Shown here: piece by piece, positions 2-64,000 of the stretch
Layout: the number at the start of each line of letters is the position of its first letter
How positions within the stretch are numbered: the stretch's first letter is position 1
IMG/VR virus record: IMGVR_UViG_3300017951_000010
Location: 1-64,000 of that record
Direction: 5' to 3' (one strand)
From: a virus
Length of the DNA: 64,000 nucleotides
Notes under the pieces: model-generated
What the model was told of the DNA's origin: nothing
The model's input: only the letters and a program-made list of their open reading frames with translations
Database searches by the model: none
Made by a program: the position numbers and the translations under genes

Positions 2-1000
2 ATCCTACCAGTAATCAGAAGGGTTATGCCAACTGTGATCGCTAACGAGATCGTAGGTGTACAACCAATGACTGGTCCTGTAGGACAAATCCACACATTA
101 AGAATAAGATATGCAGACACAGTTGCGTCAAACACGACAGCAGGTGAAGAAGCATTATCTCCATTCAAAATCGCGAAAGCATACTCTGGTAACCAGAACA
201 ACTCTACACCTAAAGGTGCATCAACTGCCTCTTTAGAGGGTACACCTGGTAAGAGATTATCAATCCAGATCTTGAAACAACCGGTTGAAGCGAAATCTAG
301 AAAACTTTCTGCTAGATGGACTTTTGAAGCGGCTCAAGATGCTCAAGCACAGCAAGGTATCGATGTAGAAGCAGAAATCATGGCGGCATTAGCTCAAGAG
401 ATTACTGCTGAGATCGACCAAGAGATCATCGGATCATTAAGAACATTAGCCGGTTCGGCAAGTTCAGGTACGTATGATCAATCTGCTGTATCTGGTACTG
501 CTACATTCGTTGGTGATGAACACGCGGCATTGGCTGTGTTGATCAACAGAGCGGCGAATGAAATCGCAACAAGAACAAGAAGAGGCGCTGGAAACTACGC
601 TGTAGTATCTCCAACTGCTTTAACTGTACTTCAATCAGCAACAACTTCAGCGTTCGCAAGATCAACTGAAGGTACATTCGAAGCACCAACAAACACTAAA
701 TTCGTTGGTACTTTAAACGGTGCTATGAGAGTATACGTTGACGCATACGCTTCTGACGGTACAGACGTACTTGTAGGTTACAAAGGTGCAAGTGAGGCAG
801 ACGCTCCAGCGTTCTATTGTCCTTACATTCCTTTAATGTCTTCAGGCGTTGTACTAGATCCTGCTACTTTCGAACCAGTTGTAGGTTTCCTAACTAGATA
901 CGGTTATGTTGAATTAACAAACACTGCATCTTCACTAGGTAACGCGGCTGACTACGTAAACACAGTAGGTGTAACAAACGGAAACTTAAAATTCGCGTAA
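2..1000 (+). CDS. 23: major capsid protein gp23, C-terminal part (5' end outside window)
   Basis: This is the precursor of the main head shell protein, which assembles hexamers of the T4-type prohead. The frame is open from base 2 through the first in-window ATG at 26, and the residues before that ATG (ILPVIRRV) fit gp23, so the gene enters from upstream and the ATG at 26 is internal. The conserved segment IVGVQPMTGPVGQIHTLR follows at once, and the protein ends with the usual gp23 C-terminal region after a stretch rich in Ala and Gln. A strong terminator lies 17 bases after the stop, which fits a highly expressed last gene of a head operon. Confidence 0.93.
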   Translation: MLPVIRRVMPTVIANEIVGVQPMTGPVGQIHTLRIRYADTVASNTTAGEEALSPFKIAKAYSGNQNNSTPKGASTASLEGTPGKRLSIQILKQPVEAKSRKLSARWTFEAAQDAQAQQGIDVEAEIMAALAQEITAEIDQEIIGSLRTLAGSASSGTYDQSAVSGTATFVGDEHAALAVLINRAANEIATRTRRGAGNYAVVSPTALTVLQSATTSAFARSTEGTFEAPTNTKFVGTLNGAMRVYVDAYASDGTDVLVGYKGASEADAPAFYCPYIPLMSSGVVLDPATFEPVVGFLTRYGYVELTNTASSLGNAADYVNTVGVTNGNLKFA

Positions 1001-10472: not shown

Positions 10473-10484
10473 CGTGATTGTCGG

Positions 10485-10492
10485 TATTTAAC
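10485..10492 (-). promoter_or_regulatory. late promoter GTTAAATA (minus strand)
   Basis: The predicted start near 10479 gives a leader of about 7 nt to the ATG at 10472. Confidence 0.5.
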
Positions 10493-10513
10493 ACCCATTA
10501 TACAGTGTAATGC

Positions 10514-10521
10514 GGTAAATA
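10514..10521 (+). promoter_or_regulatory. late promoter GGTAAATA
   Basis: The predicted start near 10527 gives a 40-nt leader with a good Shine-Dalgarno (AAGGGGA, 10554-10560) before the ATG at 10567. Confidence 0.65.
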
Positions 10522-10566
10522 TCAATAGTTTTGCAAAACAAATATTATCGATAAGGGGAAAACAAA

Positions 10567-30280: not shown

Positions 30281-31873
30281 ATGGCATACGTAAGTTTAGA
30301 TTCAGACCAAATTAAGAAGGCCAATAAAAGGCACAAATACTCAAAGGAACAAGTAGAACAACTTGAGAAGTGCATGGACGAGAAGACAGGCCCTTTGTAT
30401 TTCATGAAACAGTTCATGAAGATCCAGCATCCTACCAAAGGCGAAATGCCTTTTGAACCTTATCCGTACCAGGAGAGATTGATCGAAGCATACAATTCAC
30501 ATAGATTCAGTATTTCGATGTTGCCCAGACAGACAGGCAAGACAACCTGTGCCTCGGGCTATCTTATATGGTACGCCATGTTCAAGCCAGATTCACAGAT
30601 ACTAATTGCCGCACACAAATACGCAGGAGCATCAGACATCATGTCTAGGGTGCGTTATGCATATGAGATGTTGCCGGCTTGGATCAAAGCCGGAGTCAAC
30701 CAATACAACAGGAACTCGATAGAGTTCGACAACGGATCAAAGATAATGGCAACCACAACAACAGAGAACACAGGACGGGGTATGTCCTTGACAATGATCT
30801 ATTGTGATGAGTTCGCGTTCGTGCAACCACCCGAGAAAGCCAAAGAGTTTTGGACTTCACTGTCGCCAACTTTGAGTACAGGTGGTAAGTGCATGATCAC
30901 AAGCACTCCCAACTCAGACGAAGACCAGTTCGCCATGATATGGAAAGAGGCCAACAAACGATTTGATGAATATGGAAACGACAAGATAGTGGGCACCAAC
31001 GGCTTCTATGCCATGAAGGCGCACTGGAACGAACACCCAGACAGAGACGAGGCATGGGCAGAAGCAGAAAGAGCCAGGATCGGTGAAGAAAGATTTAGAC
31101 GGGAACACGAATGTGAGTTCTTGATTTTTGACGAGACATTAATCAACAGTATAACTTTGGCCGACATGGAGGGCATGCCACCAGTGGAGACCACGGGGCA
31201 AGTGCGTTGGTTCAAAAGGCCAACTCCGGGACACACCTACATGGTTTCCTTAGACCCTAGCATGGGGACGGGTGGAGACTTTGCCGCTATACAGGTGTTC
31301 GAACTGCCCACATTTGAGCAAGTGGGAGAATGGCAACACAACACCACTCCCATGAATCAACAAGTTAGGATTTTACAGGGCATCAACAAGCACATACACG
31401 ACACAATTTTAGAAAAGGACTCCACAGCAACTCCACAAATATTTTATTCAATGGAAAACAACACCATAGGTGAAGCCGCGCTCATGAGAGTTATGGACAT
31501 AGGTGAAGAAAACATACAAGGAATGTTCTTATCTGAACCAATTAGAAAAGGACACAGGAGGAAATTTAGAAGAGGATTCAACACAACTGCAAAGTTTAAA
31601 ATAGACGCTTGTACAAAATTCAAAGAGCTCATTGAGAGTGGAAAGATGAAAATAAACTCACAACTGCTTGTATCCGAACTAAAGGATTTCGTTGCAAGTG
31701 GATTGAGTTACAAGGCCAAACCCGGACAGCACGACGACCTAGTGAGTGCCTGCCTTTTAATGACACGTATGATGAAGGTTTTGGCAGATTTTGATCCAAA
31801 AATATTTGAAAAATGGACTGACAGGACCAGTGAGATCACACCAATGCCAATATTTGGATCGTTCACAGGATAA
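30281..31873 (+). CDS. 17: terminase large subunit gp17
   Basis: This is the motor ATPase and headful nuclease. The ATPase half has YPYQERLIEAYNSHRFSISM before the Walker A PRQTGKTT (residues 82-89), Walker B MIYCDE (172-177) and a coupling motif around MITSTPN (205-211). The nuclease half has MVSLDPSMGTGGD with D325, FYSMENNTIGEAAL with the second acidic residue, and GQHDDLVSACLLM with the third. At 530 residues it is close to other marine gp17 proteins (T4 is 610). Confidence 0.95.
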   Translation: MAYVSLDSDQIKKANKRHKYSKEQVEQLEKCMDEKTGPLYFMKQFMKIQHPTKGEMPFEPYPYQERLIEAYNSHRFSISMLPRQTGKTTCASGYLIWYAMFKPDSQILIAAHKYAGASDIMSRVRYAYEMLPAWIKAGVNQYNRNSIEFDNGSKIMATTTTENTGRGMSLTMIYCDEFAFVQPPEKAKEFWTSLSPTLSTGGKCMITSTPNSDEDQFAMIWKEANKRFDEYGNDKIVGTNGFYAMKAHWNEHPDRDEAWAEAERARIGEERFRREHECEFLIFDETLINSITLADMEGMPPVETTGQVRWFKRPTPGHTYMVSLDPSMGTGGDFAAIQVFELPTFEQVGEWQHNTTPMNQQVRILQGINKHIHDTILEKDSTATPQIFYSMENNTIGEAALMRVMDIGEENIQGMFLSEPIRKGHRRKFRRGFNTTAKFKIDACTKFKELIESGKMKINSQLLVSELKDFVASGLSYKAKPGQHDDLVSACLLMTRMMKVLADFDPKIFEKWTDRTSEITPMPIFGSFTG

Positions 31874-34415: not shown

Positions 34416-35390
34416 ATGGCATCATTGGCTGAAATAAGAGCGAAGTTAAAATCTCAAGAAGTGAATCGCTCCACTTCATCAGGCGGAGACAACGCCATCT
34501 ACCCACACTGGAACATATCGGAAGGTTCTGAGGCAGTCGTTAGATTTTTACCAGATAAGGATACGAATAACACATTTTTCTGGACCGAAAGGAACATGAT
34601 CAAGTTACCGTTCGCAGGTATCAAAGGTCAGACTGATTCAAGACCGGTGACAGTGCAAGTACCATGCATGGAGATGTATGGGAAGACTTGTCCAGTGCTC
34701 ACAGAGGTGAGACCGTGGTTCAAAGACAAGAGCATGGAAGACATGGGCAGAAAATACTGGAAGAAGAAGAGTTACATCTTCCAGGGATTTGTCACAACGA
34801 ATCCACTAGCGGAAGACTCAACACCTGAGAATCCAATCAGAAGATTTATTATTGGACCTCAGATCTTCAACATAATCAGAAGTGCATTGATGGATCCAGA
34901 GATGGAAGAAATGCCAACTGACTACGTGAAGGGCGTGGACTTCAGAATAACTAAAACCACAAAGGGTGGTTATGCTGACTACTCAACTTCAAAATGGTCG
35001 AGAAGAGAAAGAGCGTTGGACGAGGCGGAGAGAGCCGCGATCGACACACATGGGTTACACAACCTAGGTGACTTCAGACCAAAAGAGCCAACCGAGGCAG
35101 AGGTGAAAATAATCAAGGAATTATTTGAGAAATCTGTTGAAGGTGAGGCTTATGATCTTGAACAGTACGGACAGTACTTCAGACCTGCAGGGATGGCCTA
35201 CAATGCACCGCAAACACCAAAAGCGGAAGCACCAGCGGCTACAACAGCACCAGCGTCTGAACCTGCACCAGCACCAGTGACGGAATCTGCACCAGCACCA
35301 CAACCAGCGGCGACTACGGCTCCTGCAGGCGACAGTGCCAAGAGGGCAGAGGACATACTGAAACTGATCAGATCAAGACAAGCAAAATAA
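34416..35390 (+). CDS. 32: single-stranded DNA-binding protein gp32
   Basis: This 324-residue protein coats ssDNA during replication and recombination. It has the N-terminal cooperative segment (MASLAEIRAKLKSQEVNRS), then the core with YPHWNISEGSEAVVRFLPD, FFWTERNMIKLPF, PCMEMYGKTCPV, GRKYWKKKSYIFQGFV and FIIGPQIFNII. The region VPCMEMYGKTC may hold part of a zinc site. The C-terminal tail, from about 265, is an Ala/Pro/Thr repeat, less acidic than in T4, ending AEDILKLIRSRQAK. The ribosome site AAAGGAGG is one of the strongest in the window. Confidence 0.93.
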   Translation: MASLAEIRAKLKSQEVNRSTSSGGDNAIYPHWNISEGSEAVVRFLPDKDTNNTFFWTERNMIKLPFAGIKGQTDSRPVTVQVPCMEMYGKTCPVLTEVRPWFKDKSMEDMGRKYWKKKSYIFQGFVTTNPLAEDSTPENPIRRFIIGPQIFNIIRSALMDPEMEEMPTDYVKGVDFRITKTTKGGYADYSTSKWSRRERALDEAERAAIDTHGLHNLGDFRPKEPTEAEVKIIKELFEKSVEGEAYDLEQYGQYFRPAGMAYNAPQTPKAEAPAATTAPASEPAPAPVTESAPAPQPAATTAPAGDSAKRAEDILKLIRSRQAK

Positions 35391-35564: not shown

Positions 35565-36626
35565 ATGACAAAAGTGTTTGACGCGACAAAATTTAGAAAA
35601 AGCATTACGAAATCAATTCAAGGACTAGGCATAGGGTTCAGTGATCCAACAGACTGGATATCGACAGGCAACTATGCACTGAACTACCTAATATCAGGAG
35701 ATTTCAACAGAGGCGTCCCACTGGGCAAGGTCTCTGTACTAGCAGGAGAATCGGGCGCAGGAAAGTCATACATTGCATCGGGTAACATCATAAGGAACGC
35801 ACAGGAACAAGGTATTTTTGTAATCCTAATAGATTCAGAGAACGCACTAGATGAAACCTGGTTACAGGCGCTGAACGTTGACACATCAGAAGACAAATTA
35901 CTAAAATTAAGTTTATCTATGATAGATGACGTAGCGAAAACAGTTTCAGAATTTATGAAATCATACAAAGACGAACACGCAGACAACAAGGAAGGCGCTC
36001 CAAAAGTTTTATTTGTGATAGACTCGTTGGGTATGCTGTTGACACCAACTGATGTGGACCAGTTCGAGAAAGGTGAGATGAAAGGCGACCTAGGTAGGAA
36101 GCCTAAGGCACTTACAGCACTAGTTAGGAACTGTGTGAACATGTTTGGTAGTTGGAACGTTGGACTTATAGCAACCAACCACACATATGCATCACAGGAC
36201 ATGTTTGATCCAGACGACAAGATATCAGGAGGTCAAGGCTTTATATATGCAAGTTCCATTGTGATTGCAATGAAAAAACTTAAACTTAAAGAAGACGAAA
36301 AAGGCAACAAGATATCAGATGTGAGGGGTATAAGAGCGGCATGTAAAGTCATGAAGACCAGGTATGCCAAGCCTTTCGAAAGTGTGCAAGTGAAGATTCC
36401 ATATGACACAGGCATGGATCCTTACAGTGGACTCGTGGATCTTTTTGAGAAAAAAGGTGTGCTGACACAACAAGGAAACAGGTTAAAATACATCGATTCG
36501 AATGGCAAAGAGCACTTAGATTTTAGGAAAGCATGGACAGGTGATAAATTAGATATGCTTATGGCAGACTTCACAAAAATTGCTGGAGAGCCAGATACAA
36601 AAACAGAAGAAAAGAGCAATGATTGA
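35565..36626 (+). CDS. uvsX: RecA-like recombinase UvsX
   Basis: The 353-residue strand-exchange protein has Walker A GESGAGKS (residues 61-68), Walker B VLFVIDSLGML, LIATNHTYASQDMFDPDDKISGGQGFIYASS covering the L2 region, and SVQVKIPYDTGMDPYSGLVDLFEKKGVL near the end, all UvsX features. It works with gp32 and a UvsY-type mediator in recombination-dependent replication. Its stop overlaps the next start by ATGA. Confidence 0.95.
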   Translation: MTKVFDATKFRKSITKSIQGLGIGFSDPTDWISTGNYALNYLISGDFNRGVPLGKVSVLAGESGAGKSYIASGNIIRNAQEQGIFVILIDSENALDETWLQALNVDTSEDKLLKLSLSMIDDVAKTVSEFMKSYKDEHADNKEGAPKVLFVIDSLGMLLTPTDVDQFEKGEMKGDLGRKPKALTALVRNCVNMFGSWNVGLIATNHTYASQDMFDPDDKISGGQGFIYASSIVIAMKKLKLKEDEKGNKISDVRGIRAACKVMKTRYAKPFESVQVKIPYDTGMDPYSGLVDLFEKKGVLTQQGNRLKYIDSNGKEHLDFRKAWTGDKLDMLMADFTKIAGEPDTKTEEKSND

Positions 36627-39623: not shown

Positions 39624-39626
39624 TCT

Positions 39627-41076: not shown

Positions 41077-41083
41077 GTGTGTC

Positions 41084-41089
41084 ATTATA
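41084..41089 (-). promoter_or_regulatory. sigma70-like -10 box for minus-strand glycan genes
   Basis: A perfect TATAAT on the minus strand puts the start near 41077, one base before the ATG. The -35 is weak (CTGGCA with an 18-base spacer). Confidence 0.45.
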
Positions 41090-41106
41090 GCATAATTATT
41101 ATTTGA

Positions 41107-46738: not shown

Positions 46739-47607
46739 AAAGTTTAACAATCGCAACAACCTGGGGCACGAAATACCATCCTAACCCTGTGGTTCCGTGT
46801 GTAGAAAGCACTATCAAAAACTGGCCCGAACATGCCAAGATACTTTTATATCCAGACGACATGAACCAATCTATAAAATCACCTCGTGTGCAAAACATAG
46901 ATCTGTTACAGGCACAACCAAAACTGCAAGAATTCATTAACAGGCATAAAGACGACCCGATGTTGAATCCTCGAATACGACAAAATACACAGGAGCAAAA
47001 AGGATTCGACAAAGACACCTCGATATATGTGTACGATGCAGTGCGTTTTAGTTATAAAGTTTTTGCGTGTATAGACGCTTGGCAAAGGACCAAACCTGAT
47101 ATGCTATGGTTCTTGGATGCTGATCTACTGACATTTGAAAAGATCCCAATGTCTTGGCTAGAACACATAATGCCAGATACAGCGTTCACGTCTTATCTGG
47201 GCCGACCAAAAAAAGGTTTTTCTGAGACTGGATACTACGCATTTAACACCGCACACAAATACACAGGCGAATTTTTTGAGAGATGGGAACAGTACTACAC
47301 AGAAGATTTATTTTTCAACATACAAAAGGGTTTTCTAAACCATTTTCCAATATCAGGGTACACAGACTCGTTCACGTTTGATGCTGTCAGGATCGAAATG
47401 GAACAGGCTGGTAAAATAAAAAATGAAGACCTAAATGACGGCAGGTGGGCGGGCGAAAGAAAGGCCAGGCATCCATTTATCAATTCAGAATTGGGACAGT
47501 ACATGGACCACATGAAAGGTTACACAAGAAAGTCTGCAATGAGCTCTAAAAAAAGAGACCTTACCACTAAACAGACACATCCATATTGGCAAACACTAAA
47601 AGATTAG
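46735..47607 (+). CDS. GT-A-like glycosyltransferase, paralogue 2
   Basis: This 290-residue paralogue of the gene at 44720 has MLWFLDADLLTF (D-x-D), TSYLGRPKKGFSETGYYAFN, NSELGQYMDHMKGYTRK and HPYWQTLKD. The two flank the PLP enzyme, and both have the R-H-K-x-D-P segment near residue 70. The start overlaps the preceding stop (ATGA). Confidence 0.75.
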   Translation: MKSLTIATTWGTKYHPNPVVPCVESTIKNWPEHAKILLYPDDMNQSIKSPRVQNIDLLQAQPKLQEFINRHKDDPMLNPRIRQNTQEQKGFDKDTSIYVYDAVRFSYKVFACIDAWQRTKPDMLWFLDADLLTFEKIPMSWLEHIMPDTAFTSYLGRPKKGFSETGYYAFNTAHKYTGEFFERWEQYYTEDLFFNIQKGFLNHFPISGYTDSFTFDAVRIEMEQAGKIKNEDLNDGRWAGERKARHPFINSELGQYMDHMKGYTRKSAMSSKKRDLTTKQTHPYWQTLKD

Positions 47608-47610
47608 GTT

Positions 47611-47618
47611 AGTAAATA
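47611..47618 (+). promoter_or_regulatory. late promoter AGTAAATA inside the glycan block
   Basis: The predicted start is 47624, exactly the second in-frame ATG. The first ATG (47618) overlaps the box. Confidence 0.55.
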
Positions 47619-47623
47619 TGGCT

Positions 47624-48559
47624 ATGAGATCACTTATAACAGGTTGCCAAGGTTTCATAGGCAAAAATCTAGCACAGCATCTAAAAAAACAAGGACATCA
47701 TGTCACTGGAATCGATAAAAAACTAAAAGTGGGTGATCCTGTTTTTGTTGATGATTTTGTAGGACACGACATGGAGTCAAGAATTACAATAGACAACGAC
47801 TTTGACAGGATATATCACCTGAGTGCTGACGTGCCAAATTCAAAAAATGTTGGATCAGCTCAACTTGGCACTGGCAGAAGTAACCCTATTCAGACAATAC
47901 AAGCAATGGATTTTGCGGCTAAAAATAAATCACATTTTATATATGCTGTGTCTGCCATGATATACAACACTAGTTTTCAAGGTCATAACGGACCTGACCT
48001 TAATGAAGATGAACACATATGGCCTGCACAGCCGGCTGGCAATATATACGGAATGGAAAAATTATACAACATGCAATTGGCACAAGAATACGCAAAAAGT
48101 TATGGCATGAAAATTTCGTTACCTATATTCCACGCCATGTACGGTCCACACTGTGATGTGCTTGAAAATTCTAAAGTTGTAGCGGCAACTTGCCTAAAAA
48201 TAATCAAAGCCAATGATCCTGGAGAAATTGAAATTTGGGGTGACGGAACGCAAATTAGATCCTTCTGCTACATTGATGACTTGATGATAGGGCTTGACAA
48301 ATTAATTGAAAATGACGTGCAAATACCAATCAACATGGGATCAGATGAAGCGATCACCATGAACCAATTAGCAGACATGCTGATCGACATATCAGGGAAA
48401 AAAATAAAAAAGACATACCTTCCATCCGGACCGGCTGGTTGTATGCGAAGAAATTCTGACAATACGAAAATTAAAAAATTGACAGGCTGGAAGCCAAACT
48501 ATCCACTCCTAGAAGGACTGAAAAAAACATACGAATACGTACAGACAGTAGTAAAATGA
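47624..48559 (+). CDS. NAD-dependent sugar epimerase/dehydratase (SDR)
   Basis: The 311-residue enzyme starts MRSLITGCQGFIGKNL, an extended-SDR nucleotide-binding turn (T-G-x2-G-F-I-G). Y-x3-K is in NIYGMEKLYNMQ, preceded by FIYAVSAMIYN for the Ser. IRSFCYIDDLMIGLDKL and NTKIKKLTGWKPNYPLLEGL are typical of the GDP-mannose epimerase and related groups. It could supply the activated sugar for the neighbouring transferases. An in-frame ATG at 47618 exists, but the late promoter favours 47624. Confidence 0.8.
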   Translation: MRSLITGCQGFIGKNLAQHLKKQGHHVTGIDKKLKVGDPVFVDDFVGHDMESRITIDNDFDRIYHLSADVPNSKNVGSAQLGTGRSNPIQTIQAMDFAAKNKSHFIYAVSAMIYNTSFQGHNGPDLNEDEHIWPAQPAGNIYGMEKLYNMQLAQEYAKSYGMKISLPIFHAMYGPHCDVLENSKVVAATCLKIIKANDPGEIEIWGDGTQIRSFCYIDDLMIGLDKLIENDVQIPINMGSDEAITMNQLADMLIDISGKKIKKTYLPSGPAGCMRRNSDNTKIKKLTGWKPNYPLLEGLKKTYEYVQTVVK

Positions 48560-49428
48560 AACTAGAAATATGGACGGACTACGGTCCATTGAATTCAAAA
48601 CCAATTTTTCACGCATTCATCCAAAGCGTTCGTGACGCCGGAGACCAAGTTTACGAAAATAGGTCGACCAACGCCGACGTGGCTGTAATATGGAGCGTGT
48701 TATGGCGAGGCAGGATGCAATCTTACAGACCAATCTGGGAAAAGTACAGGACAGAAGGCAAACCGGTCGTTGTCATAGAAGTGGGCGGTCTAAGACGCAA
48801 TCAAAGTTTCAAGATAGGAATCAATGGCATAAACAGAGATGCAGATTTTGCCAATCAAGAGTTTGATGACAAACGTTGGCCATTGTTTAGACACGAATTG
48901 AAGCCGTGGAATCCAACAGGAGAGATGATAGTAATATGTGGACAACATGATCAATCGGAACAATGGAAGGGGTTACCTAGAATGGGCACCTGGATCAAAA
49001 ACCAAATTGCAGAAATCAGAAAATACACATCTCGTCCAATACTAGTGAGGCCACATCCACGAAATCAGATCCCATTTAAGGAAAGTGATTTCAAGAACGT
49101 CAAAGTACGTCTGCCGAGGCGAGACTACAAAACATACGACGACACAGACTTCAAGGCTGTGCTAGGCCGTGCGTGGGCAATCATCAACCATAGTTCTAAT
49201 CCTGCCATAGAGTCAGTGATAAACGGAGTTCCGGTGTTTGTATCGCAATCTAGTTTATGCCATGATGTGGGTAACTTATCAATTTCAGACATAAACACAC
49301 CTGCTATGCCAAATAGAATGCAGTGGGCCAACAGGCTTGCCTACACTGAATGGTTCGAAGACGAGATTAGACAGGGATTGCCATGGCAAAGAATCAAAAA
49401 ACGACTGCAGGAGAAATACCTCAAATGA
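48556..49428 (+). CDS. GT-B-like protein, paralogue D
   Basis: This 290-residue member has IINHSSNPAIESVINGVPVF, INTPAMPNRMQWANRLAYTEW and EIRQGLPW, with RPILVRPHPRNQIP before. The R-P-H-P motif is shared with paralogue C. Its N-terminal half (WSVLWRGRMQSYRPIWEKYR) is unlike the others. The start overlaps the SDR stop. Confidence 0.65.
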   Translation: MKLEIWTDYGPLNSKPIFHAFIQSVRDAGDQVYENRSTNADVAVIWSVLWRGRMQSYRPIWEKYRTEGKPVVVIEVGGLRRNQSFKIGINGINRDADFANQEFDDKRWPLFRHELKPWNPTGEMIVICGQHDQSEQWKGLPRMGTWIKNQIAEIRKYTSRPILVRPHPRNQIPFKESDFKNVKVRLPRRDYKTYDDTDFKAVLGRAWAIINHSSNPAIESVINGVPVFVSQSSLCHDVGNLSISDINTPAMPNRMQWANRLAYTEWFEDEIRQGLPWQRIKKRLQEKYLK

Positions 49429-50186
49429 CAATAATAAACTTAGGAAAAATGAATGAAATACTACCGATAGAATTTGAAACGTACAAAGGCGAGACCATTG
49501 TTGTTAAGACAATCATAAGGGGCGGTAAAAAAATACAGGAAACAGGATACTACGAAGACAAAGTCAAAAACAAGCCGAGAGGCAATGCCTACGTGATAGG
49601 TAACGGTCCATCGAGGAAAGGTTTCGACCTCAACACACTCAAAGCCACAGGACAAACTTACGGATGCAATGCCCTGTACAGAGACTTCTTGCCAGATTTT
49701 ATCTTTAGCGTGGATACAAAAATCACAATGAAAATGGTAGAGGACGAGGTGGGTCTCAAGACAAATCATTATGCACCTGCTCTCGAAGTCAACAGGAAAC
49801 AATCAAAAGGCATGCTACACCTCATACCACACAATCCTCACTGGATATCAGGCAACGCCGCGTTCTGGACTGCATGTGTGCATGGGCACAGAAACATTTA
49901 CCTAATAGGTTTTGATTTCAGAGAATACGGCAAGGGCGAACTGAACAATATCTACCAGGACACGGAAAACTACGGCGAGAGGCATAGTGATGCCATATTT
50001 GAACAGTGGTTGAAACAATTTAGGGATCACCTGAAGATGAGACCTTACTGCCATTTTACTATTGTTCACGACAACCCACCGGATTTCCTTAACTACTTGC
50101 AGACAGGAACAGATCTTGGAAATTCCAGTCTAATGACTTACAAGGAATTTAACGATAAAGTTTTAAAAAAGCAGACTGAAACTTAG
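49425..50186 (+). CDS. DUF115/MAF-like sugar-related protein
   Basis: The 253-residue protein has AYVIGNGPSRKGFDLNTLKA followed by YGCNALYRDFLPDFIFSVD, then NIYLIGFDFREYGKGELNNIY. The G-N-G-P-S motif and the I-G-x-D-F strand are found in proteins of the MptE/MAF-type group, some of which transfer nonulosonic acids and others of which are pterin enzymes. In this position a glycan role is the better guess. The ATG at 49425 overlaps the preceding stop (ATGA). Confidence 0.6.
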   Translation: MTIINLGKMNEILPIEFETYKGETIVVKTIIRGGKKIQETGYYEDKVKNKPRGNAYVIGNGPSRKGFDLNTLKATGQTYGCNALYRDFLPDFIFSVDTKITMKMVEDEVGLKTNHYAPALEVNRKQSKGMLHLIPHNPHWISGNAAFWTACVHGHRNIYLIGFDFREYGKGELNNIYQDTENYGERHSDAIFEQWLKQFRDHLKMRPYCHFTIVHDNPPDFLNYLQTGTDLGNSSLMTYKEFNDKVLKKQTET

Positions 50187-52011: not shown

Positions 52012-53475
52012 ATGAGCAGTTGTAAATTAGTAATAAAAGACGAAGTAAATGTGAAGTTTGAGAATCTATCTCTCGAATGGCGCAAAAGACTGTCAAACAA
52101 ATTCAAATATGAGATACCATATGCAAGGCATCTGCCAGCAGTGAAATTGGGCAGATGGGATGGTAAGGTAAGTTTCTTTGGATTGGGAGGCACCACGTAC
52201 CTCAACCTAGTTGACCAAATACTTCCTATACTAGAAGAAGGCGGCGTATATGTGGACTTCGAAGACAGACGTCAACAACACAATTATGAATTTAAAAAAG
52301 TAGACAAGGACTACTTGTCGCACATCACGTGGCCAGACAATCATCCGTGTGCAGGACAGAAATTACAACTTCGTGACTACCAAGTTGAAACCATAAACAA
52401 GTTTATAGAGAATCCTCAGTGCATACAGGAGATTGCCACGGGAGCAGGTAAAACTATAATCACAGCGGCATTGTGTCAATTGGTTGAACCATACGGACGT
52501 ACATTGACTATTGTTCCAAACAAAAGTTTAGTGACTCAGACAGAGGAAGACTTTCTCACCTGTAATTTAGATACTGGCGTGTACTATGGTGACAGGAAGG
52601 AACTTGGTAGGTACAATACAATCGCGACATGGCAGAGCTTGAACGTTCTGGAAAAGAAAGCCAAAGACGAACACACAACAGAGTTCCTTGAAGCAATACA
52701 AGGCATCAACACAATAATAATTGATGAGGTGCACATGGCAAAAGCAGACGTGTTGAAGAGATTATTGACTGGTCCATTTGCACACTGTGGCATACGTTGG
52801 GGTCTCACAGGTACTGTACCAAAGGCAGATTATGAATTCATGGGCCTGAAATGTAGCATCGGTGAGGTTGCAAATAAAATACAGGCCAGTGAACTACAGG
52901 AGAAAGGTGTGTTGGCAAACTGCCACGTGAATGTGTTGCAGACACAGGACCATCCACAGTTCAAAACATATGGAGAAGAATTGAAATGGTTAACCACAGA
53001 CCAAACAAGAATGACTTGGGTAGCACAGACAATACAAAGTATCTCAACATCAGGGAATACTTTGATACTAGTAGATAGAATAAGTGCAGGTGAAATACTA
53101 GAGAAGAAATTAAAGGACTCAGTGTTTGTGTCTGGGTCAACAAAAAACACAGATAGAAAGGAGCAGTACGATGAAGTATCTACTAGCCAAAATAAAATTA
53201 TTATTGCCACATATGGAGTTGCCGCTGTTGGCATTAATATTCCTAGGATTTTTAATCTTGTCCTAATAGAGCCAGGTAAGTCATTTGTGAGGGTGATACA
53301 GAGCATAGGTCGTGGGATCAGAAAAGCAGAGGACAAGGACAGTGTGCAGATCTGGGACATTACCAGCAGTTGCAAGTTTGCAAAAAGACACCTGGGGGCG
53401 AGGAAAAAGTTTTACAAAGAAGCCAATTATCCATACAAGATAGAAAAGATAAATTATGAAAACAATTTTAATTGA
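52012..53475 (+). CDS. uvsW: recombination helicase UvsW
   Basis: The 487-residue SF2 helicase has an N-terminal DNA-contact domain (KLGRWDGKVSFFG), Walker A ATGAGKT (142-148), DEVH (238-241), WGLTGTVPKA as motif III, and QSIGRGIRKAED as motif VI. UvsW unwinds branched DNA and R-loops and ends origin-dependent replication in T4 (T4 UvsW is 503 residues). It starts on the base after the preceding stop, so the two genes are expressed together. The last 20 bases overlap the SGNH-like gene. Confidence 0.93.
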   Translation: MSSCKLVIKDEVNVKFENLSLEWRKRLSNKFKYEIPYARHLPAVKLGRWDGKVSFFGLGGTTYLNLVDQILPILEEGGVYVDFEDRRQQHNYEFKKVDKDYLSHITWPDNHPCAGQKLQLRDYQVETINKFIENPQCIQEIATGAGKTIITAALCQLVEPYGRTLTIVPNKSLVTQTEEDFLTCNLDTGVYYGDRKELGRYNTIATWQSLNVLEKKAKDEHTTEFLEAIQGINTIIIDEVHMAKADVLKRLLTGPFAHCGIRWGLTGTVPKADYEFMGLKCSIGEVANKIQASELQEKGVLANCHVNVLQTQDHPQFKTYGEELKWLTTDQTRMTWVAQTIQSISTSGNTLILVDRISAGEILEKKLKDSVFVSGSTKNTDRKEQYDEVSTSQNKIIIATYGVAAVGINIPRIFNLVLIEPGKSFVRVIQSIGRGIRKAEDKDSVQIWDITSSCKFAKRHLGARKKFYKEANYPYKIEKINYENNFN

Positions 53476-55989: not shown

Positions 55990-56215
55990 GATCAAATTAG
56001 AAATAAATGACGATTTGAAATTTGAAGATGGCGACTGTGCTGTGATTATCAAGGATGATGGATCTATAGGAAGAGTGATAATGCCGGATATGGACAAAGA
56101 CTACTTGAATACAGAAGGTTACAGAAAACTGCTTGATGTCATTGAGGTGTTGGATCCAGGAAGCAAAGAACAGTTCATCAAATACAATGAGAAAAACAAA
56201 GGGAGTGTACACTAA
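55982..56215 (+). CDS. small conserved acidic protein (TTG start)
   Basis: This 77-residue protein starts at TTG, overlapping the previous stop. No ATG is available in frame upstream of the conserved part. It reads SKIKLEINDDLKFEDGDCAV, then DGSIGRVIMPDMD, EGYRKLLDVIEVLDPGSKEQFIKYNE. This family is familiar from marine T4-like phages beside the zinc-finger gene. Function unknown. Confidence 0.6.
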   Translation: MSKIKLEINDDLKFEDGDCAVIIKDDGSIGRVIMPDMDKDYLNTEGYRKLLDVIEVLDPGSKEQFIKYNEKNKGSVH

Positions 56216-56805
56216 TGCCTGACGTAGACATAGACTTCTATGACAGAGACGGTGTGCTGAAACTGTTCAAACACACACCAGCAACAATCATAAAAGACAA
56301 CAAGGCAGAAAAACATAAAACAGGTGTTTACTTTCATGCTTGTCCGGAACACCCTGTTACGGGACACAGCACTCTGGACTACAAAAAGGCCGAGGACAGA
56401 GGATATTTTAAAATAGACATGTTGAATGTGAACATCTATAAAGATGTCAAATCTGAACAAGAATTGGTAGAGTTGATGATACAGGAACCAGATTGGGACA
56501 TGCTTAAAAATCCAAAGACTGTTGAGAAACTTTTCCACCTAAACGGCCATTACAACATCGTTTCAAAGTTGGAGCCACGAAATATTGAACAACTTGCGGC
56601 TGTACTAGCAATCATACGTCCTGCAAAAAGGCATCTAATGTACAAGGACTGGAAAGATATATTGAACGAAGTATGGATTCGTCCAACCGATGGATCTTAT
56701 TTTTTCAAGAAGTCCCACGCCATAGCATATGCACAGGCCATAGTTGTCCAAATGAATTTACTGAGCAGAGCTAAATATAGTTTTGATGCAACATCAAAAA
56801 ACTAA
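56215..56805 (+). CDS. miniature DnaE-like protein
   Basis: The 196-residue protein keeps, in order, short motifs of bacterial Pol III alpha: MPDVDIDF at the very N-terminus (catalytic Asp pair at 5 and 7), TGVYF then YFKIDML (third Asp at 68), LFHLNGHYNIVSKLEPRNIEQLAAVLAIIRP (106-136), and FFKKSHAIAYAQAIVVQMNLL (163-183). In DnaE these span palm and fingers over more than 400 residues; here the thumb, PHP and most of the fingers are missing. It may be a polymerase relic, a regulator, or a partner of the DnaE-type protein at 62338. It starts at TAATG and overlaps the next gene. Confidence 0.65.
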   Translation: MPDVDIDFYDRDGVLKLFKHTPATIIKDNKAEKHKTGVYFHACPEHPVTGHSTLDYKKAEDRGYFKIDMLNVNIYKDVKSEQELVELMIQEPDWDMLKNPKTVEKLFHLNGHYNIVSKLEPRNIEQLAAVLAIIRPAKRHLMYKDWKDILNEVWIRPTDGSYFFKKSHAIAYAQAIVVQMNLLSRAKYSFDATSKN

Positions 56806-58268: not shown

Positions 58269-59282
58269 ATGAACCTGATCCAATCTACTATTCTGACAAG
58301 TCTACCTGCGGCTAGGAAAAAAACTCCCAGTGGCTGGATATCTTTCAATGCGCCTTGTTGCGTACACAACGGCGAGACGGCAGACAAAAAGAAACGTGGT
58401 GGCATAATGACCAGTGCAGACGGAACAGTAAGTTATCACTGCTTCAATTGTGGATTCAAGGCCAGTTACGTGATCGGCAGGAAGCTCACGTACAAGATGA
58501 GGCAGTTCATGGGCTACATCGGCATACCCGACGACACAATAAAGAAGTTGGCCATAGAGGCCATGCGTGAAGAAGAGAACGACATCAAGTATGAGAAAAA
58601 GAAATTTGTAAACTTTAAAAACAAAGCACTGCCAAAAAACACACACAAACTTGATATTTGGCTAGAGAAATATATCGGAAACGACTTGACAGAACCGCAA
58701 TGGAAAAAAATTGATGGACTACTCAAATACCTAGGAGATAGAGGCATTGGCCCTGATTGGTATGATTTCATGTACTCTCCAGACAAGATGTGGGACATAC
58801 ACCAACGTCTGTTAATACCATTCTATTGGAGGGGTGACATTGTTGGTTACACAGGAAGAATATTTGAAGAATCGCGTGGTGTAAAATATTACACCGACGT
58901 ATGGCCGGGGTACGTGTTCAACATGGACGCACAGGATTGGGCAAGGAAATTTGTTATAGTCACTGAGGGACCTTTTGATGCCATTGCCGTTTCTGGAGTC
59001 AGCATACTGGGGTCGGAGATAAATGACACACAAAGAGAGTTGATTAATAATCTTGGAAGAAGAGTTATTGTTGTACCGGACAGAGATGCACCTGGAGAAA
59101 AATTGATTGATCAGGCGACAGAGTTTGGATGGAGCGTGGCCTTTCCTGAATGGGATAACAGTATCAATGATGTTGCAGATGCAGTAAAGAATTATGGGAG
59201 GCTGTACACGATACAATCTATTTTGAAAACAGCAGAAAGTACCAAACTTAAAATTGACCTGAAGAGGAGGATGTATGGTTAG
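58269..59282 (+). CDS. 61: DNA primase gp61
   Basis: The 337-residue primase has a zinc-binding domain (C30, C31, H33 in APCCVHNGE; C58 and C61 in YHCFNCGF) and a TOPRIM core with VTEGPFDAIA (E233) and VVPDRDAPGEK (D271 and D273). SRGVKYYTDVWPG and WDIHQRLLIPFYWRG are typical gp61 segments. It makes lagging-strand primers with helicase gp41, encoded one gene later. Confidence 0.93.
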   Translation: MNLIQSTILTSLPAARKKTPSGWISFNAPCCVHNGETADKKKRGGIMTSADGTVSYHCFNCGFKASYVIGRKLTYKMRQFMGYIGIPDDTIKKLAIEAMREEENDIKYEKKKFVNFKNKALPKNTHKLDIWLEKYIGNDLTEPQWKKIDGLLKYLGDRGIGPDWYDFMYSPDKMWDIHQRLLIPFYWRGDIVGYTGRIFEESRGVKYYTDVWPGYVFNMDAQDWARKFVIVTEGPFDAIAVSGVSILGSEINDTQRELINNLGRRVIVVPDRDAPGEKLIDQATEFGWSVAFPEWDNSINDVADAVKNYGRLYTIQSILKTAESTKLKIDLKRRMYG

Positions 59283-60183
59283 TTTCCACGTTGAACCTAC
59301 AAGTAAATGCACTCTGGCGTGTAGCCTATGTGATAGGACTTGGTTCTATGAAAAGTTCAAGACTCGATCTATACACGAAATTGATGTAGACAATCTTGTA
59401 TCTTTTGTGGGTGCCAATGCTAACATCGAACTGTGTGGCAACAACGGAGATCCTATATATCATTCTAAGTTCTTAGAACTTATTCGTAAATTAAAAGATA
59501 ACAACTGTAGGATAAGCATTATAACAAACGGTTCATCGAGAAGTAAAACTTGGTGGACAAGTTTATCTGTCCTACTGACAGAAAAAGATTCAATTACATT
59601 TAGCATAGACGGTCTAGAGGATACCAATCACATCTATCGTAAAAATTCTAAATGGCACACAATAATAGAGGCTGTAAATGTCATGTCGTCTAGTAAATGT
59701 AAATTGATTTGGAAGTTCATTGTATTCAAACACAATCAACATCAGATAGAACAAGCACAGGGTTTTTCAAAGACTTTGGGTTTTGATCATTTCAGATTAG
59801 AGCAGAGCGATAGATGGTTAGGACAAAAAGATTTGATGCCTGACGAGGAATATGTTGACAAATACTACAAGCATCAGGAGTCAGTTTTGATTGACAAAGA
59901 CTACCAAACCCAAATGAGTCCTGCTTGTTTGGTAAATGACAAACCAAGTTCTGACCTTTATATAGACGCAGAAGGCGACTTTTATCCTTGCTGTTGGATG
60001 GGCACCTATAGATACAAGTACAAGAACATTTTTTCACCAAAACAATCAAATTTCAATATTAGAAACAACACACTACAAGATATTTTGCAAAGGTCGGATG
60101 TGGTTGAATTTTTTAATTCAACAAAACAATTTACATCTGCACACGATTGTTGTAAAATACAATGCGGAGTAAAAAATGGCTGA
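59275..60183 (+). CDS. radical SAM protein with SPASM-like C-terminus
   Basis: The 302-residue protein has the radical SAM motif C-x3-C-x2-C at C12, C16 and C19 (KCTLACSLCDR), IELCGNNGDPIYH as the Gly-rich SAM contact, and SIITNGSSRS and ITFSIDGLED as later strands. Its C-terminal region has PACLV, YPCCWMG and DCCKIQCG, enough Cys for auxiliary Fe-S clusters, as in SPASM proteins that modify peptides or act as dehydrogenases. It is AT-rich relative to its neighbours and inserted between primase and helicase with overlaps at both ends. The substrate is unknown. Confidence 0.75.
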   Translation: MVSFHVEPTSKCTLACSLCDRTWFYEKFKTRSIHEIDVDNLVSFVGANANIELCGNNGDPIYHSKFLELIRKLKDNNCRISIITNGSSRSKTWWTSLSVLLTEKDSITFSIDGLEDTNHIYRKNSKWHTIIEAVNVMSSSKCKLIWKFIVFKHNQHQIEQAQGFSKTLGFDHFRLEQSDRWLGQKDLMPDEEYVDKYYKHQESVLIDKDYQTQMSPACLVNDKPSSDLYIDAEGDFYPCCWMGTYRYKYKNIFSPKQSNFNIRNNTLQDILQRSDVVEFFNSTKQFTSAHDCCKIQCGVKNG

Positions 60184-61615
60184 ATACACATTTGATGTAC
60201 AAAAACTTTATATAGAAATGCTTTTGGCAGATGCGGAATCATTTGCTAGAGCGCAGAATATATTCAAACCGGAATCTTTTGATCGAAAACTGCAACCAAT
60301 TGCCAAGTTCGTCAAAGACTACATGGACGAATACAAAGTCATGCCAGAGGTTGAACAAGTGAACGCAAAGCATGACATAAAGTTGAAATCAGCAAAAGAC
60401 CTAGACCCGAGCCATTTCAATTGGCTACTAGACGAATTTGAAACATTCTCGAGACACAAGGCACTGGAACGTGCGATACTACAGTCAGCAGACTTATTGG
60501 AAAAGGGCGACTATGCTCCTGTGGAGGACATGGTCAAAGACGCAGTGAACGTGGGACTGACACGTGATCTCGGTACAGACTACTTTGAGGACCCTAAAGG
60601 AAGACTAGAGGCACTCAAGGCAAACAACGGGCAGATCAGCACAGGCTGGCAGAACCTCGACAAGAAACTGTTTGGCGGTTTCAACCGTGGAGAACTAAAC
60701 ATCTTTGCAGGTGGATCAGGCGCAGGTAAGAGTTTGTTCTTGCAGAATCTTGCGGTGAACTGGGCACAGGCTGGTCTGAACGTTTGTTACATATCATTTG
60801 AATTGAGTGAACAACTGACTGCTATGAGATTGGACGCTATGATGACAAACATTCCCACTCGTAAGGTGTTTCCAGAGATAGAAAACGTAGAGATGAAGGT
60901 CAAAATGCTTGCCAAGAAATCAGGTACTCTTCAAATCAAATACTTGCCAAGCGGAAGTAACGTGTTGGACGTGAGAACATATCTCAAAGAGCTAGAACTA
61001 AAAAACAAGAAGAAAATTGATTGCATACTGATAGACTATTTGGATCTCATGATGCCAAAAAGCAAAAGGATATCTCCGGCAGACTTGTTTATCAAGGACA
61101 AGTATGTTTCGGAAGAACTGAGGAACTTGGTTGTGGAAAAACAGTGTGTACTTGCAACTGCATCACAGTTGAACAGGGCGTCTGTGGAAGAGATCGAATT
61201 CGATCACAGTCACATATCGGGCGGACTGTCCAAGATACAAACCGCTGACAACGTGATAGGTATATTCACATCGAGGGCTATGAAAGAACGTGGTAGGTAT
61301 CAGATACAGTTCATGAAGACAAGATCAAGTTCTGGTGTTGGACAGAAAGTGGACTTGGAGTTTGACGTGGACAGTTTACGTATCAGGGACCTGGCAGATG
61401 ATCCGGAATACAAACAGTTTGACAAACAAAGAAGCACAATATACGATAACCTCAAGAAGACATCTAAGGTCACGGGCAGTGACACTCCAAAAGATGCGAG
61501 AGATAGTGTACCAGACCCAACAAAAGGTGACACCATAGGTAAGGTGAAAGCAACTGTCGAGGGCGGCAAACTGAGACAACTCTTAAACGAACTGCACTCA
61601 GATGAAGAACAATAA
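60176..61615 (+). CDS. 41: replicative DNA helicase gp41
   Basis: The 479-residue DnaB-type hexameric helicase has STGWQNLDKKLFGGFNRGELNIFAGG followed by Walker A GGSGAGKS (179-186). Walker B is CILIDYLDLM (283-292), and SQLNRA and HISGGLSKIQTADNV follow as later motifs. Length and order match T4 gp41 (475). It unwinds the fork and stimulates gp61. It overlaps the radical SAM stop at its start and the Nth start at its end. Confidence 0.93.
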   Translation: MAEYTFDVQKLYIEMLLADAESFARAQNIFKPESFDRKLQPIAKFVKDYMDEYKVMPEVEQVNAKHDIKLKSAKDLDPSHFNWLLDEFETFSRHKALERAILQSADLLEKGDYAPVEDMVKDAVNVGLTRDLGTDYFEDPKGRLEALKANNGQISTGWQNLDKKLFGGFNRGELNIFAGGSGAGKSLFLQNLAVNWAQAGLNVCYISFELSEQLTAMRLDAMMTNIPTRKVFPEIENVEMKVKMLAKKSGTLQIKYLPSGSNVLDVRTYLKELELKNKKKIDCILIDYLDLMMPKSKRISPADLFIKDKYVSEELRNLVVEKQCVLATASQLNRASVEEIEFDHSHISGGLSKIQTADNVIGIFTSRAMKERGRYQIQFMKTRSSSGVGQKVDLEFDVDSLRIRDLADDPEYKQFDKQRSTIYDNLKKTSKVTGSDTPKDARDSVPDPTKGDTIGKVKATVEGGKLRQLLNELHSDEEQ

Positions 61616-62285
61616 CGACATAGAATTCATCTATGAGAAGTTAAGTTCACTGTACCCAAACTACTCAAACAAGAAACCCAAAGCAAAAATATATTCCAAA
61701 GCATACACTAGCCTGATAGGAGTAATGCTGTCGGCACAGTCACAGGATAAAAGGACCGCTGTTGCTTGTAGACAATTATTTGCTTTGGCCGACACACCCG
61801 AGGAGATGTTAAAACTATCACAGGCGGAAATTATCGAGGCCATAAAACCCGCAGGACTGTTTAACGCAAAGTCTAAAAACATACTAGCCACTAGCAAAAT
61901 GTTACTTGAAAAATTTAACGGGCGTGTGCCAAACACACAGAAAGAACTGATGACACTGCCCGGAGTTGGACGTAAGAGTTCTGATATCGTTATGAGATTT
62001 GTTTTTGGTGAGCCACACATAGCAGTGGACACCCACGTGTTCAGGATGTTGTGGAGGCTAGGTTGGGTGGACTCATTAGACGAAGGCAAGGCATCTATCA
62101 CTGTGAACAATACCACACCCAGCAAGTACAAGTACGGTGCACATATGTGGTTGATAACACACGCCAAGTTGGTGTGTAAATCAAGATCGCCGTTGTGCGA
62201 CTCCTGTGTGATAAGCGCCGCGTGTGACCGGCGGAACATCGACACACCAAAAAATAAATTACGTCAAGAAATCTCCGCAACATAA
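61602..62285 (+). CDS. nth: endonuclease III (Nth-type DNA glycosylase)
   Basis: This 227-residue base-excision enzyme has the helix-hairpin-helix LPGVGRKSSDIVMRF with catalytic K125, catalytic D143 in AVDTHVFRM, and a C-terminal 4Fe-4S cluster, C-x6-C-x2-C-x5-C, at C192, C199, C202 and C208. It removes oxidised pyrimidines and nicks the backbone. All key residues are present, so it should be active. Placement in the replication operon suggests repair of oxidised DNA during phage replication. Confidence 0.92.
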   Translation: MKNNNDIEFIYEKLSSLYPNYSNKKPKAKIYSKAYTSLIGVMLSAQSQDKRTAVACRQLFALADTPEEMLKLSQAEIIEAIKPAGLFNAKSKNILATSKMLLEKFNGRVPNTQKELMTLPGVGRKSSDIVMRFVFGEPHIAVDTHVFRMLWRLGWVDSLDEGKASITVNNTTPSKYKYGAHMWLITHAKLVCKSRSPLCDSCVISAACDRRNIDTPKNKLRQEISAT

Positions 62286-62337: not shown

Positions 62338-64000
62338 ATGAAAGATAAGGAACTAAACGACATAACAAGGCTGTACGATAGATTTATTAGGCAATGCCCA
62401 GGCACAGAAGAATACACGCAAAGGCTCGCTGAGGAAACTCGCATCATCCTTCAACTACGTTTCGTAGATTACTTCATACAAATATGTGACATCATTGCAA
62501 TGACACGAGACATACCACACATGACACGTGGTTCGGCTGGTTCGTCATTGGTCTGTTACCTATTGGGCATAACAGATGTGGACCCAGTGGAGTGGGGCAT
62601 ACCCGTAGCAAGGTTCCTCAATCCCAACAGGGATGACCTACCTGATGTTGATATAGACTTTCCCCATCACAAGCAGGACGAGGTGATGCAAAGAATATTC
62701 AAACGTTGGCCGGGACGCAGTGCTAGAATATCTAACTACGTGCTCTATCAAGATAAGTCGGCAAGGCGTGAAGCGGCGAAACGTTTGGGTGTCAAGGGTA
62801 ACCTACCCCGCAGGTTCACATATGATTCGTTAGGCATCGACGCCAAAGAGGCCAGACGTATCGAGAACAAATTGAAAGGTAAGAAAAGATGCATATCAAA
62901 ACACTGCGGAGGAATACTGATGTTTCAAAGACAACTACCAAAAAGCCTGTTCACGGCGGAGAACCAAATACTACTAGACAAGAACGAAGTGGAGGACCTG
63001 GAACACCTCAAGGTGGACATTTTAGCCAATCGTGGTTTGTCGCAACTCATAGAGATAGATCCCATACGGAAACTGACAGACTATCCCGAAGAGGATTCCG
63101 CTACTTCGGAACTTTTGTGCAGGGGAGATGTACTGGGAGTGACACAGGCAGAGAGTCCGGCCATGAGGAGACTGTTCAGGGCGATACAACCGAAGAGTAG
63201 GAAGGACTGTGTGTTCGCCACGGCACTGATAAGGCCCGTTGCCATATCAGGACGCAAGAAGGCCACCATGTTCCATGACTGGAGCAAGGAACGTATGAGT
63301 GATACTATTGTGTATGAGGATGATGCCATAGACAGGATCGCAGAGGTGCTGGACATAGACAAGTATGAGGCCGACATGTACAGACGTGCATTCGCCAAGA
63401 AGAACGAAGAAAAGATAATGGAGTTCATAACGAGACTGGGCGAGCATCCACGCAAGGACGAGATTATAACAATGCTACAGTCATTGTCAGGGTTTGGCCT
63501 GTGCAGGGCACACGCCGTTAACCTGGGAAGGTTGATATGGGCGTTGGCTTATCAAAAAGCACACAACAAAGAAAAATTTTGGAGATCTTGTTTAAAACAC
63601 TGCCAGGGATCATACAAGCGTTGGGTTTACAGGACAGAAGCCAAGCGTGTGGGCATAGAAGTAGTAACACCTAGCAAGTCCGACAAATGGGACACACCGG
63701 AGTACCAATACAGGAAGTACGGTTGGTGGAGCCAGGATAATTTCATGCCAGGCATGTACGTGAAAGAACTTTATCTGGACAAAGTGGAGTTCGCAGGTAT
63801 GATAGCCAACGGAAGAGTGTTCCGTAGCGACAAAGGTAGTTACGTGACGTTCCTGACGCTGGGCGTTGGTAATGGACAATACATAGATGTCACTATCAAA
63901 CGAGCGTTTGCATACAGTGATCATGATGTGGTGTGGGGACAGGGTACAATAAGGCACAGCAACAACTCGGACTATGTGGAGTGCTATGATTCAAAAGGTT
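62338..64000 (+). CDS. DnaE-type DNA polymerase (Pol III alpha-like), lacks PHP domain; runs off window
   Basis: The frame is open from the ATG at 62338 to the window end (about 554 residues). It follows bacterial Pol III alpha: TRGSAGSSLVCYLLGITDVDP (63-83), LPDVDIDF with catalytic D105 and D107, SKHCGGILMF (187-196), LKVDILANRGLS with D227, LGVTQAESPAMRRLF, then a block ending in RRAFAKKNEE, GFGLCRAHAVNLGRL, and an OB-like strand FAGMIANGRVF. Only about 60 residues precede the GS motif, so the usual 270-residue PHP domain is absent. T4 relatives normally use family B gp43; none is in the window. Confidence 0.85.
   Translation, partial: MKDKELNDITRLYDRFIRQCPGTEEYTQRLAEETRIILQLRFVDYFIQICDIIAMTRDIPHMTRGSAGSSLVCYLLGITDVDPVEWGIPVARFLNPNRDDLPDVDIDFPHHKQDEVMQRIFKRWPGRSARISNYVLYQDKSARREAAKRLGVKGNLPRRFTYDSLGIDAKEARRIENKLKGKKRCISKHCGGILMFQRQLPKSLFTAENQILLDKNEVEDLEHLKVDILANRGLSQLIEIDPIRKLTDYPEEDSATSELLCRGDVLGVTQAESPAMRRLFRAIQPKSRKDCVFATALIRPVAISGRKKATMFHDWSKERMSDTIVYEDDAIDRIAEVLDIDKYEADMYRRAFAKKNEEKIMEFITRLGEHPRKDEIITMLQSLSGFGLCRAHAVNLGRLIWALAYQKAHNKEKFWRSCLKHCQGSYKRWVYRTEAKRVGIEVVTPSKSDKWDTPEYQYRKYGWWSQDNFMPGMYVKELYLDKVEFAGMIANGRVFRSDKGSYVTFLTLGVGNGQYIDVTIKRAFAYSDHDVVWGQGTIRHSNNSDYVECYDSKG

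What the first reader, a model, noticed from the sequence alone, without database searches (positions are those of the whole stretch)
62338..64000. PHP-less DnaE-type polymerase in a T4-like genome
Palm, fingers and OB-like motifs of bacterial Pol III alpha are intact, with the catalytic Asp triad present, but the protein begins at the palm. T4-like phages are known for family B gp43. Placement after primase, helicase and Nth argues for replication or repair use. It could replace gp43 or be a second polymerase. Sequence motifs are seen directly; the role is inferred.
Basis: partly seen in the sequence, partly recalled or inferred. Interest (0 to 1): 0.8.

Follow-up and report, generated by a model that had tools for sequence, protein, structure and literature searches.

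The report
Extra Pol III-type polymerase in phage
A giant marine T4-like virus of bacteria carries, beside its normal T4-type DNA polymerase, a stripped-down but apparently working copy of the bacterial replication enzyme Pol III next to its helicase gene, suggesting that these phages divide DNA synthesis among several polymerases.

Summary
The ORF starts at ATG 62338 and ends 29 bases beyond the window (563 aa). It is a DnaE-type (C-family) polymerase core: palm, thumb, fingers and a C-terminal OB fold, without a PHP domain. It is full length, not truncated: 137 distinct intact relatives in IMG/VR contigs share its size, with the catalytic Asp triad and steric-gate His invariant (one D103H). 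A predicted structure (pLDDT 82.6) matches solved Pol III alpha chains.

The genome is a fragment of a marine relative of T4-like jumbo phages (RaK2, PA5oct, Atu_ph07). The gene does not replace gp43. A same-sample contig that abuts this record inside gp23 (exact 46-b overlap) carries gp43 and gp45. A 484-kb phage encodes a 40% homologue and gp43. The window also holds the C-half of the split 'minimal Pol III' described in 2021 for such phages, and its N-half lies near gp43 in the same population. The lineage thus encodes family B gp43, a split mini-Pol III and this single-chain enzyme.

Best reading: a non-proofreading accessory polymerase of the gp41/gp61 primosome. Primer extension or gap filling/lesion bypass remain open. 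It is a new variant of a known kind; I found no published description of it.

The parts
62338..64000 (+). PHP-less, single-chain DnaE-type DNA polymerase (563 aa; continues 29 b beyond the window to record position 64029)
62641..62664 (+). catalytic motif LPDVDIDF (D103, D105 = E. coli D401, D403), approximate coordinates from residue numbers
   Evidence: alignment; conservation
63010..63027 (+). catalytic motif KVDILA (D227 = E. coli D555), approximate coordinates from residue numbers
   Evidence: alignment; conservation
61602..62285 (+). Nth/endonuclease III-like glycosylase (HhH-GPD + HhH); present next to dnaE in many but not all relatives
   Evidence: Pfam; synteny
60176..61615 (+). gp41-type DnaB helicase; beside dnaE in 77 of 80 close and 52 of 54 distant contigs
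   Evidence: Pfam/PHROG; synteny
58269..59282 (+). gp61-type DNA primase
   Evidence: PHROG; synteny
56215..56805 (+). C-terminal unit of the split 'minimal Pol III alpha' (phrog_11778, 196 aa, starts MPDVDIDF; KIDML)
   Evidence: literature
52012..53475 (+). UvsW-type helicase
   Evidence: position and synteny with RaK2/SCTP-2
35565..36626 (+). UvsX-like recombinase (by synteny)
   Evidence: synteny with PA5oct/RaK2
34416..35390 (+). gp32-like ssDNA-binding protein (by synteny)
   Evidence: synteny with RaK2
30281..31873 (+). terminase large subunit gp17, 55% identical to PA5oct
2..1000 (+). 3' part of the major capsid gene gp23; the neighbouring contig that carries gp43 ends here with an exact 46-b overlap

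Best explanation
The gene encodes a catalytically competent DNA polymerase of the C family, reduced to palm, thumb, fingers and a C-terminal OB fold. It works in addition to the phage's family B replicase gp43, not instead of it. It lacks the PHP domain (the epsilon-binding or intrinsic proofreading site), the beta-clamp motif and the tau-binding end, so it should be non-proofreading and of low processivity on its own. Most likely it acts at the gp61/gp41 primosome: it extends RNA primers or fills short gaps, including opposite damaged bases, and then hands over to gp43/gp45, as B. subtilis DnaE hands over to PolC. Shown: intact conserved polymerase core, missing domains, linkage to the helicase, coexistence with gp43 (one 484-kb record; adjoining contigs for this population). 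Inferred: activity, recruitment and handover.
For: Domains and active site; structure match to Pol III alpha with pLDDT 82.6, best PDB hit 7pu7 E 6e-22, TMq 0.70; purifying selection; 137 distinct intact homologues, none with a PHP extension; helicase neighbour kept even where the gene order is inverted; gp43+gp45 on the abutting same-sample contig and gp44 on a 99.96% identical overlapping contig; gp43, gp45- and gp44-like genes with a 40% homologue in LR756508; no clamp motif conserved in the enzyme, whereas gp43 of relative G001 ends in FNKLFDF. Analogy: B. subtilis DnaE extends primers and hands off to PolC (PMC5627055).
Against: No biochemical or expression data. Linkage to the helicase is also compatible with repair. 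The sometimes adjacent nth gene and the weak affinity to error-prone DnaE2 profiles favour lesion bypass or gap filling over primer extension. In LR756508 the homologue is not beside the helicase. Membership of gp43 in this very genome rests on a 31-46 b overlap between contigs.
Confidence: 0.6

Rival explanations
1. Translesion or repair polymerase: a phage analogue of DnaE2/ImuC that fills gaps opposite damage, for instance with the neighbouring Nth glycosylase and the UvsX/UvsW recombination genes, in sunlit water.
For: Best NCBIfam profile is 'error-prone DNA polymerase' (178 bits against 170 for generic Pol III alpha, both far below cut-off). Shares with ImuC one residue fewer before RGSA and a similar K-[VI]-D-I-L-[AG] motif. 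Kinship with ImuC is not rejected (p 0.27) while grouping with DnaE1-type rows is (p 0.005). nth is adjacent in many relatives.
Against: The tree places it as its own deep clade, not inside DnaE2. No imuA/imuB-like neighbours. nth is absent beside the gene in many relatives, whereas the helicase is constant.
Confidence: 0.25
2. It replaces gp43 as the main replicase.
For: No PolB in the 91-kb record nor in any IMG/VR contig that contains the gene.
Against: All those contigs are fragments, and gp43 lies more than 150 kb away along the map. gp43+gp45 are on the abutting same-sample contig; LR756508 carries both genes. The enzyme lacks clamp and proofreading modules.
Confidence: 0.03
3. It forms one complex with the split mini-Pol III (N- and C-units) or is a fused/unsplit version of it that performs the same job.
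For: The split falls just before the catalytic DxD, and this enzyme spans both halves. Both kinds coexist next to the primosome in 39 close contigs and in 7 of 8 distant records (one of them partial). LR756508 has only the unsplit one. Kinship of the two is not rejected (p 0.51).
Against: The single-chain enzyme has its own complete active site plus thumb and OB, so it needs no partner. The two clades are separated by very long branches.
Confidence: 0.1
4. Degenerate or recently acquired host dnaE without function.
For: Highly reduced compared with DnaE.
Against: dN/dS 0.04-0.06, invariant active site in 138 rows, diversity down to about 61% identity within the family, long stem separating it from sampled bacterial dnaE.
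Confidence: 0.02

Closest known systems
DnaE-type Pol III alpha (C family; E. coli, T. aquaticus, M. tuberculosis DnaE)
   Same: palm, fingers, catalytic Asp triad, steric-gate His, C-terminal OB fold, overall fold
   Different: no PHP, no conserved clamp motif, no beta-binding HhH region, no tau-binding C-terminus, reduced thumb; 563 instead of 1000-1200 aa; about 24-28% identity
Split 'minimal DNA polymerase III alpha' of group 2.2 jumbo phages (Iyer et al. 2021, PMC7824862)
   Same: C-family core without PHP in gp43-bearing T4-like jumbo phages; same replication cluster
   Different: that enzyme is two separate proteins (171- and 197-aa families), much smaller in total; this one is a single 563-aa chain and coexists with it
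DnaE2/ImuC error-prone polymerase
   Same: best NCBIfam profile; shared deletion before RGSA and similar K-[VI]-D-I-L motif
   Different: the ImuC proteins compared are about 1050-1090 aa and mostly lie beside a Y-family polymerase gene; sister relation neither shown nor rejected
LR756508.1 (uncultured 484-kb phage) homologue
   Same: 574 aa, 38.6-40% identity over 98%, PHP-less, coexists with gp43
   Different: not beside helicase/primase; that record has no mini-Pol III units
Other phage DnaE (Streptomyces Lika, Pbunavirus PA8P1, Bacillus Riggi, Mycobacterium HyRo)
   Same: phage-encoded C-family polymerase
   Different: 930-1170 aa, presumably the main replicase of those phages (general knowledge, not tested); separate clades

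Membership tests
C-family (DnaE-type) DNA polymerase | palm domain PF07733 and fingers PF17657 | tested here: met
   147 and 54 bits, above cut-offs
C-family (DnaE-type) DNA polymerase | catalytic Asp triad | tested here: met
   D103, D105, D227; 137-138 of 138 rows
C-family (DnaE-type) DNA polymerase | polymerase fold | tested here: met
   predicted model, Foldseek hits to Pol III alpha/PolC with E 1e-22 to 1e-10
Canonical DnaE1 replicase | N-terminal PHP domain | tested here: not met
   ORF and homologues begin at the palm; no PF02811 match
Canonical DnaE1 replicase | beta-clamp binding motif and tau-binding C-terminus | tested here: not met
   region absent in alignment; only an unconvincing QNLFL in 10 of 138 rows
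Split minimal Pol III alpha of jumbo phages (Iyer et al. 2021) | two separate chains, N and C units | tested here: not met
   single chain; the split pair exists separately (window 56215-56805 and G026)
DnaE2/ImuC | phylogenetic membership | tested here: inconclusive
   own clade; union with ImuC p-AU 0.27
DnaE2/ImuC | imuA/imuB cassette | tested here: not met
   neighbours are gp41 helicase, nth and unrelated genes
gp43-replacing replicase | absence of family B polymerase from the genome | tested here: not met
   gp43 on abutting contig of the same sample and in LR756508
Active DNA polymerase | nucleotidyl transfer in vitro | not testable with these tools
   needs purified protein

The most novel reading that the evidence does not exclude
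These marine T4-like jumbo phages run a three-polymerase system: family B gp43 with its clamp, a two-chain mini-Pol III, and a single-chain PHP-less Pol III in the primosome cluster, each with its own job (bulk synthesis, and priming-strand or damage synthesis). That would be a eukaryote-like or Bacillus-like division of labour inside a phage.
Probability: 0.35. Interest if true: 0.78.

Novelty: new variant of a known kind. Interest (0 to 1): 0.6.

Why it matters
T4 is the textbook one-polymerase phage replisome. Here a widespread marine branch of T4-like phages keeps that replisome and adds two C-family enzymes, one of them a PHP-less single chain tied to the helicase gene and under strong purifying selection. 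It is a natural minimal Pol III alpha, useful for asking what the PHP and clamp modules add, and it makes the question whether phages use separate polymerases for the two strands or for damage directly testable.

Tried and rejected
A first AlphaFold job on 26 close sequences gave pLDDT 53 and was not used; a broader alignment gave 82.6. Placement relative to ImuC and to the split units could not be resolved. PF00929 (DnaQ-like exonuclease) and PHP were sought as separate proofreaders: none in the marine records, which are fragments; DnaQ-like genes exist in several jumbo relatives. Replacement of gp43 was considered and rejected. The downstream ABC-transporter genes were first read as urea (Urt) type; NCBIfam leaves urea and branched-chain amino acids undecided. 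No papers naming this single-chain family were found in the open-access library; subscription papers and preprints are not held.

Full report
What was checked. The window is bases 1-64000 of a 91,411-b virus record classed as linear, that is, probably a fragment. The 563-aa product matches Pfam DNA_pol3_alpha (147 bits) and DNA_pol3_finger (54 bits), with no PHP domain. Alignment with E. coli DnaE puts D103, D105 and D227 on D401, D403 and D555, R64-G65-S66 on R362-G363-S364 and H392 on H760, the residue proposed as steric gate in PMC8485763. PHP (E. coli about 1-300), the region around the beta-clamp motif and the tau-binding end are absent and the thumb is short; the C-terminus is beta-rich.

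It is a real, conserved gene. I extracted 137 distinct intact relatives of at least 520 aa, about 60-96% identical. Among 138 rows D105, D227, K225, H392, R64, R92 and R98 never vary; D103 is H in one row that starts near a contig end. dN/dS against relatives at dS 0.9-2 is 0.04-0.06. None has a PHP extension: their frames open within a few to a few tens of codons of the ATG. Hence the stop just beyond the window is the natural end.

Structure. An AlphaFold2 model from 51 family sequences has mean pLDDT 82.6 and pTM 0.81, with residues 300-324 weak. Foldseek finds M. tuberculosis DnaE (7pu7, E 6e-22, TMq 0.70), Taq and E. coli Pol III alpha, and PolC; SSB-type OB folds follow as weak partial matches. 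Viral structure matches are other phage DnaE proteins.

What genome this is. The terminase is 55% identical to PA5oct and close to Phosso and Atu_ph07. The order gp17, SSB, uvsX, uvsW, small DnaE piece, structural gene, gp61, gp41 matches RaK2 and, in its main elements, PA5oct, Phosso, Atu_ph07, SCTP-2 and Vibrio 2.275.O. So it is a marine relative of T4-like jumbo phages.

The neighbourhood. The gp41 helicase is found beside dnaE in 77 of 80 close relatives; the other three lack upstream sequence. In a wider set it is found in 52 of 54 loci, and there dnaE is often inverted relative to the helicase. The nth gene is present between them in many but not all. LR756508 is an exception without the helicase nearby.

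Is gp43 present? The record itself has no PolB, nor do the contigs that carry dnaE, but all are fragments. G001 (138.7 kb, terminase 94% identical) has gp43 about 125 kb before its terminase, ending in FNKLFDF, followed by a gp45-type clamp. A contig from sample 3300018428 (G022, 100,650 b) carries gp43 and gp45; its right end overlaps the window's left end by exactly 46 b inside gp23. A second contig of that sample (G004), 99.9% identical to the window over the 20 kb compared, overlaps it by exactly 31 b. G026 is 99.96% identical to G022 over 11.9 kb and adds a gp44-type clamp loader and the N-unit of the split Pol III. The joins rest on short overlaps in a conserved gene, so they are strong but not final. 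Independently, LR756508 (484 kb, one record) has both a 40% homologue of this enzyme and gp43, the latter in two frames, with gp45- and gp44-like genes behind it.

A third polymerase gene. Window ORF 56215-56805 begins MPDVDIDF and is phrog_11778. Iyer et al. 2021 (PMC7824862) reported that group 2.2 jumbo phages accompany gp43 with a minimal Pol III alpha split into an NTP-binding and a Mg/template-binding protein. The ORF fits their second unit; phrog_11127 fits the first and occurs in RaK2, PA5oct, Phosso, Atu_ph07, SCTP-2, XacN1, Vibrio 2.275.O and marine G026. The split lies just before the catalytic DxD, and the acidic residues are kept in the aligned representatives. The C-unit and the 563-aa enzyme sit together in 39 close contigs and 7 of 8 distant records, one a partial match. 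The 563-aa enzyme is thus an additional gene that I did not find described. A survey of marine jumbo phages lists PF07733 as the gene distinguishing one cluster (51.9% of members; PMC9123017), without saying which of the two forms it is.

Descent. In maximum-likelihood trees the family and LR756508 form one clade (100/100) on a long stem, outside the sampled bacterial, plasmid and phage DnaE groups. Union with ImuC is not rejected (p 0.27), union with a set of DnaE1-type rows is (p 0.005). Union with the split units is not rejected (p 0.51). The best NCBIfam model is 'error-prone DNA polymerase', below cut-off. Long branches limit all of this.

How it probably works. Shown: a complete polymerase active site, no PHP, no conserved clamp motif, linkage to the helicase, coexistence with gp43. 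Established knowledge: PHP carries the epsilon site or intrinsic proofreading (PMC3919608); B. subtilis DnaE extends primers and hands over to PolC (PMC5627055). Inference: the phage enzyme is a short-range, non-proofreading helper of gp43 at the primosome. Whether its daily job is primer extension or gap filling/lesion bypass cannot be told from sequence; I put about 0.6 on an accessory role at the primosome with primer extension or gap filling, 0.25 on a mainly lesion-repair role, 0.1 on a role joint with the split units and 0.03 on replacing gp43.

Verdict. Observation confirmed; interpretation partly right. It is a new variant of a known kind, of real interest because it gives a T4-type phage two C-family enzymes beside gp43.

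Noticed in passing
window 56215-56805: 196-aa C-unit of the split minimal Pol III (phrog_11778), conserved with both catalytic motifs across the RaK2/PA5oct/Atu_ph07 group; the N-unit ends and the C-unit starts just before the catalytic DxD.
   Followed up: yes
L002:4209-8809 (record 64209-68809): Five-gene ABC transporter cassette of the urea/branched-chain amino acid type directly downstream of dnaE; not seen in the flanks (up to 10 kb) of 80 related contigs. A D-glutamate cyclase-like gene follows at 8813-9655 (-).
   Followed up: partly
L003:12643-13245 (-): FTR1-type iron permease gene near the end of the phage record.
   Followed up: partly
L200:3349-6415 and 9411-11286 (LR756508): gp43 in two separate frames; the second opens with intein-like sequence (CVYTDSCPG), which might mean trans-splicing. 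gp45- and gp44-like genes follow.
   Followed up: partly
window 37293-50186: Large cluster of sugar/glycosyltransferase, epimerase and aminotransferase-like genes between uvsX and uvsW, where RaK2 has only a few genes.
   Followed up: no
G012:16805-16876 (L202): A 24-residue match to the C-terminal end of the DnaE (88%), possibly a remnant of a lost copy.
   Followed up: no
L035:1938-3644: DnaE frame broken into two ORFs in one contig, probably a sequencing or assembly frameshift.
   Followed up: no
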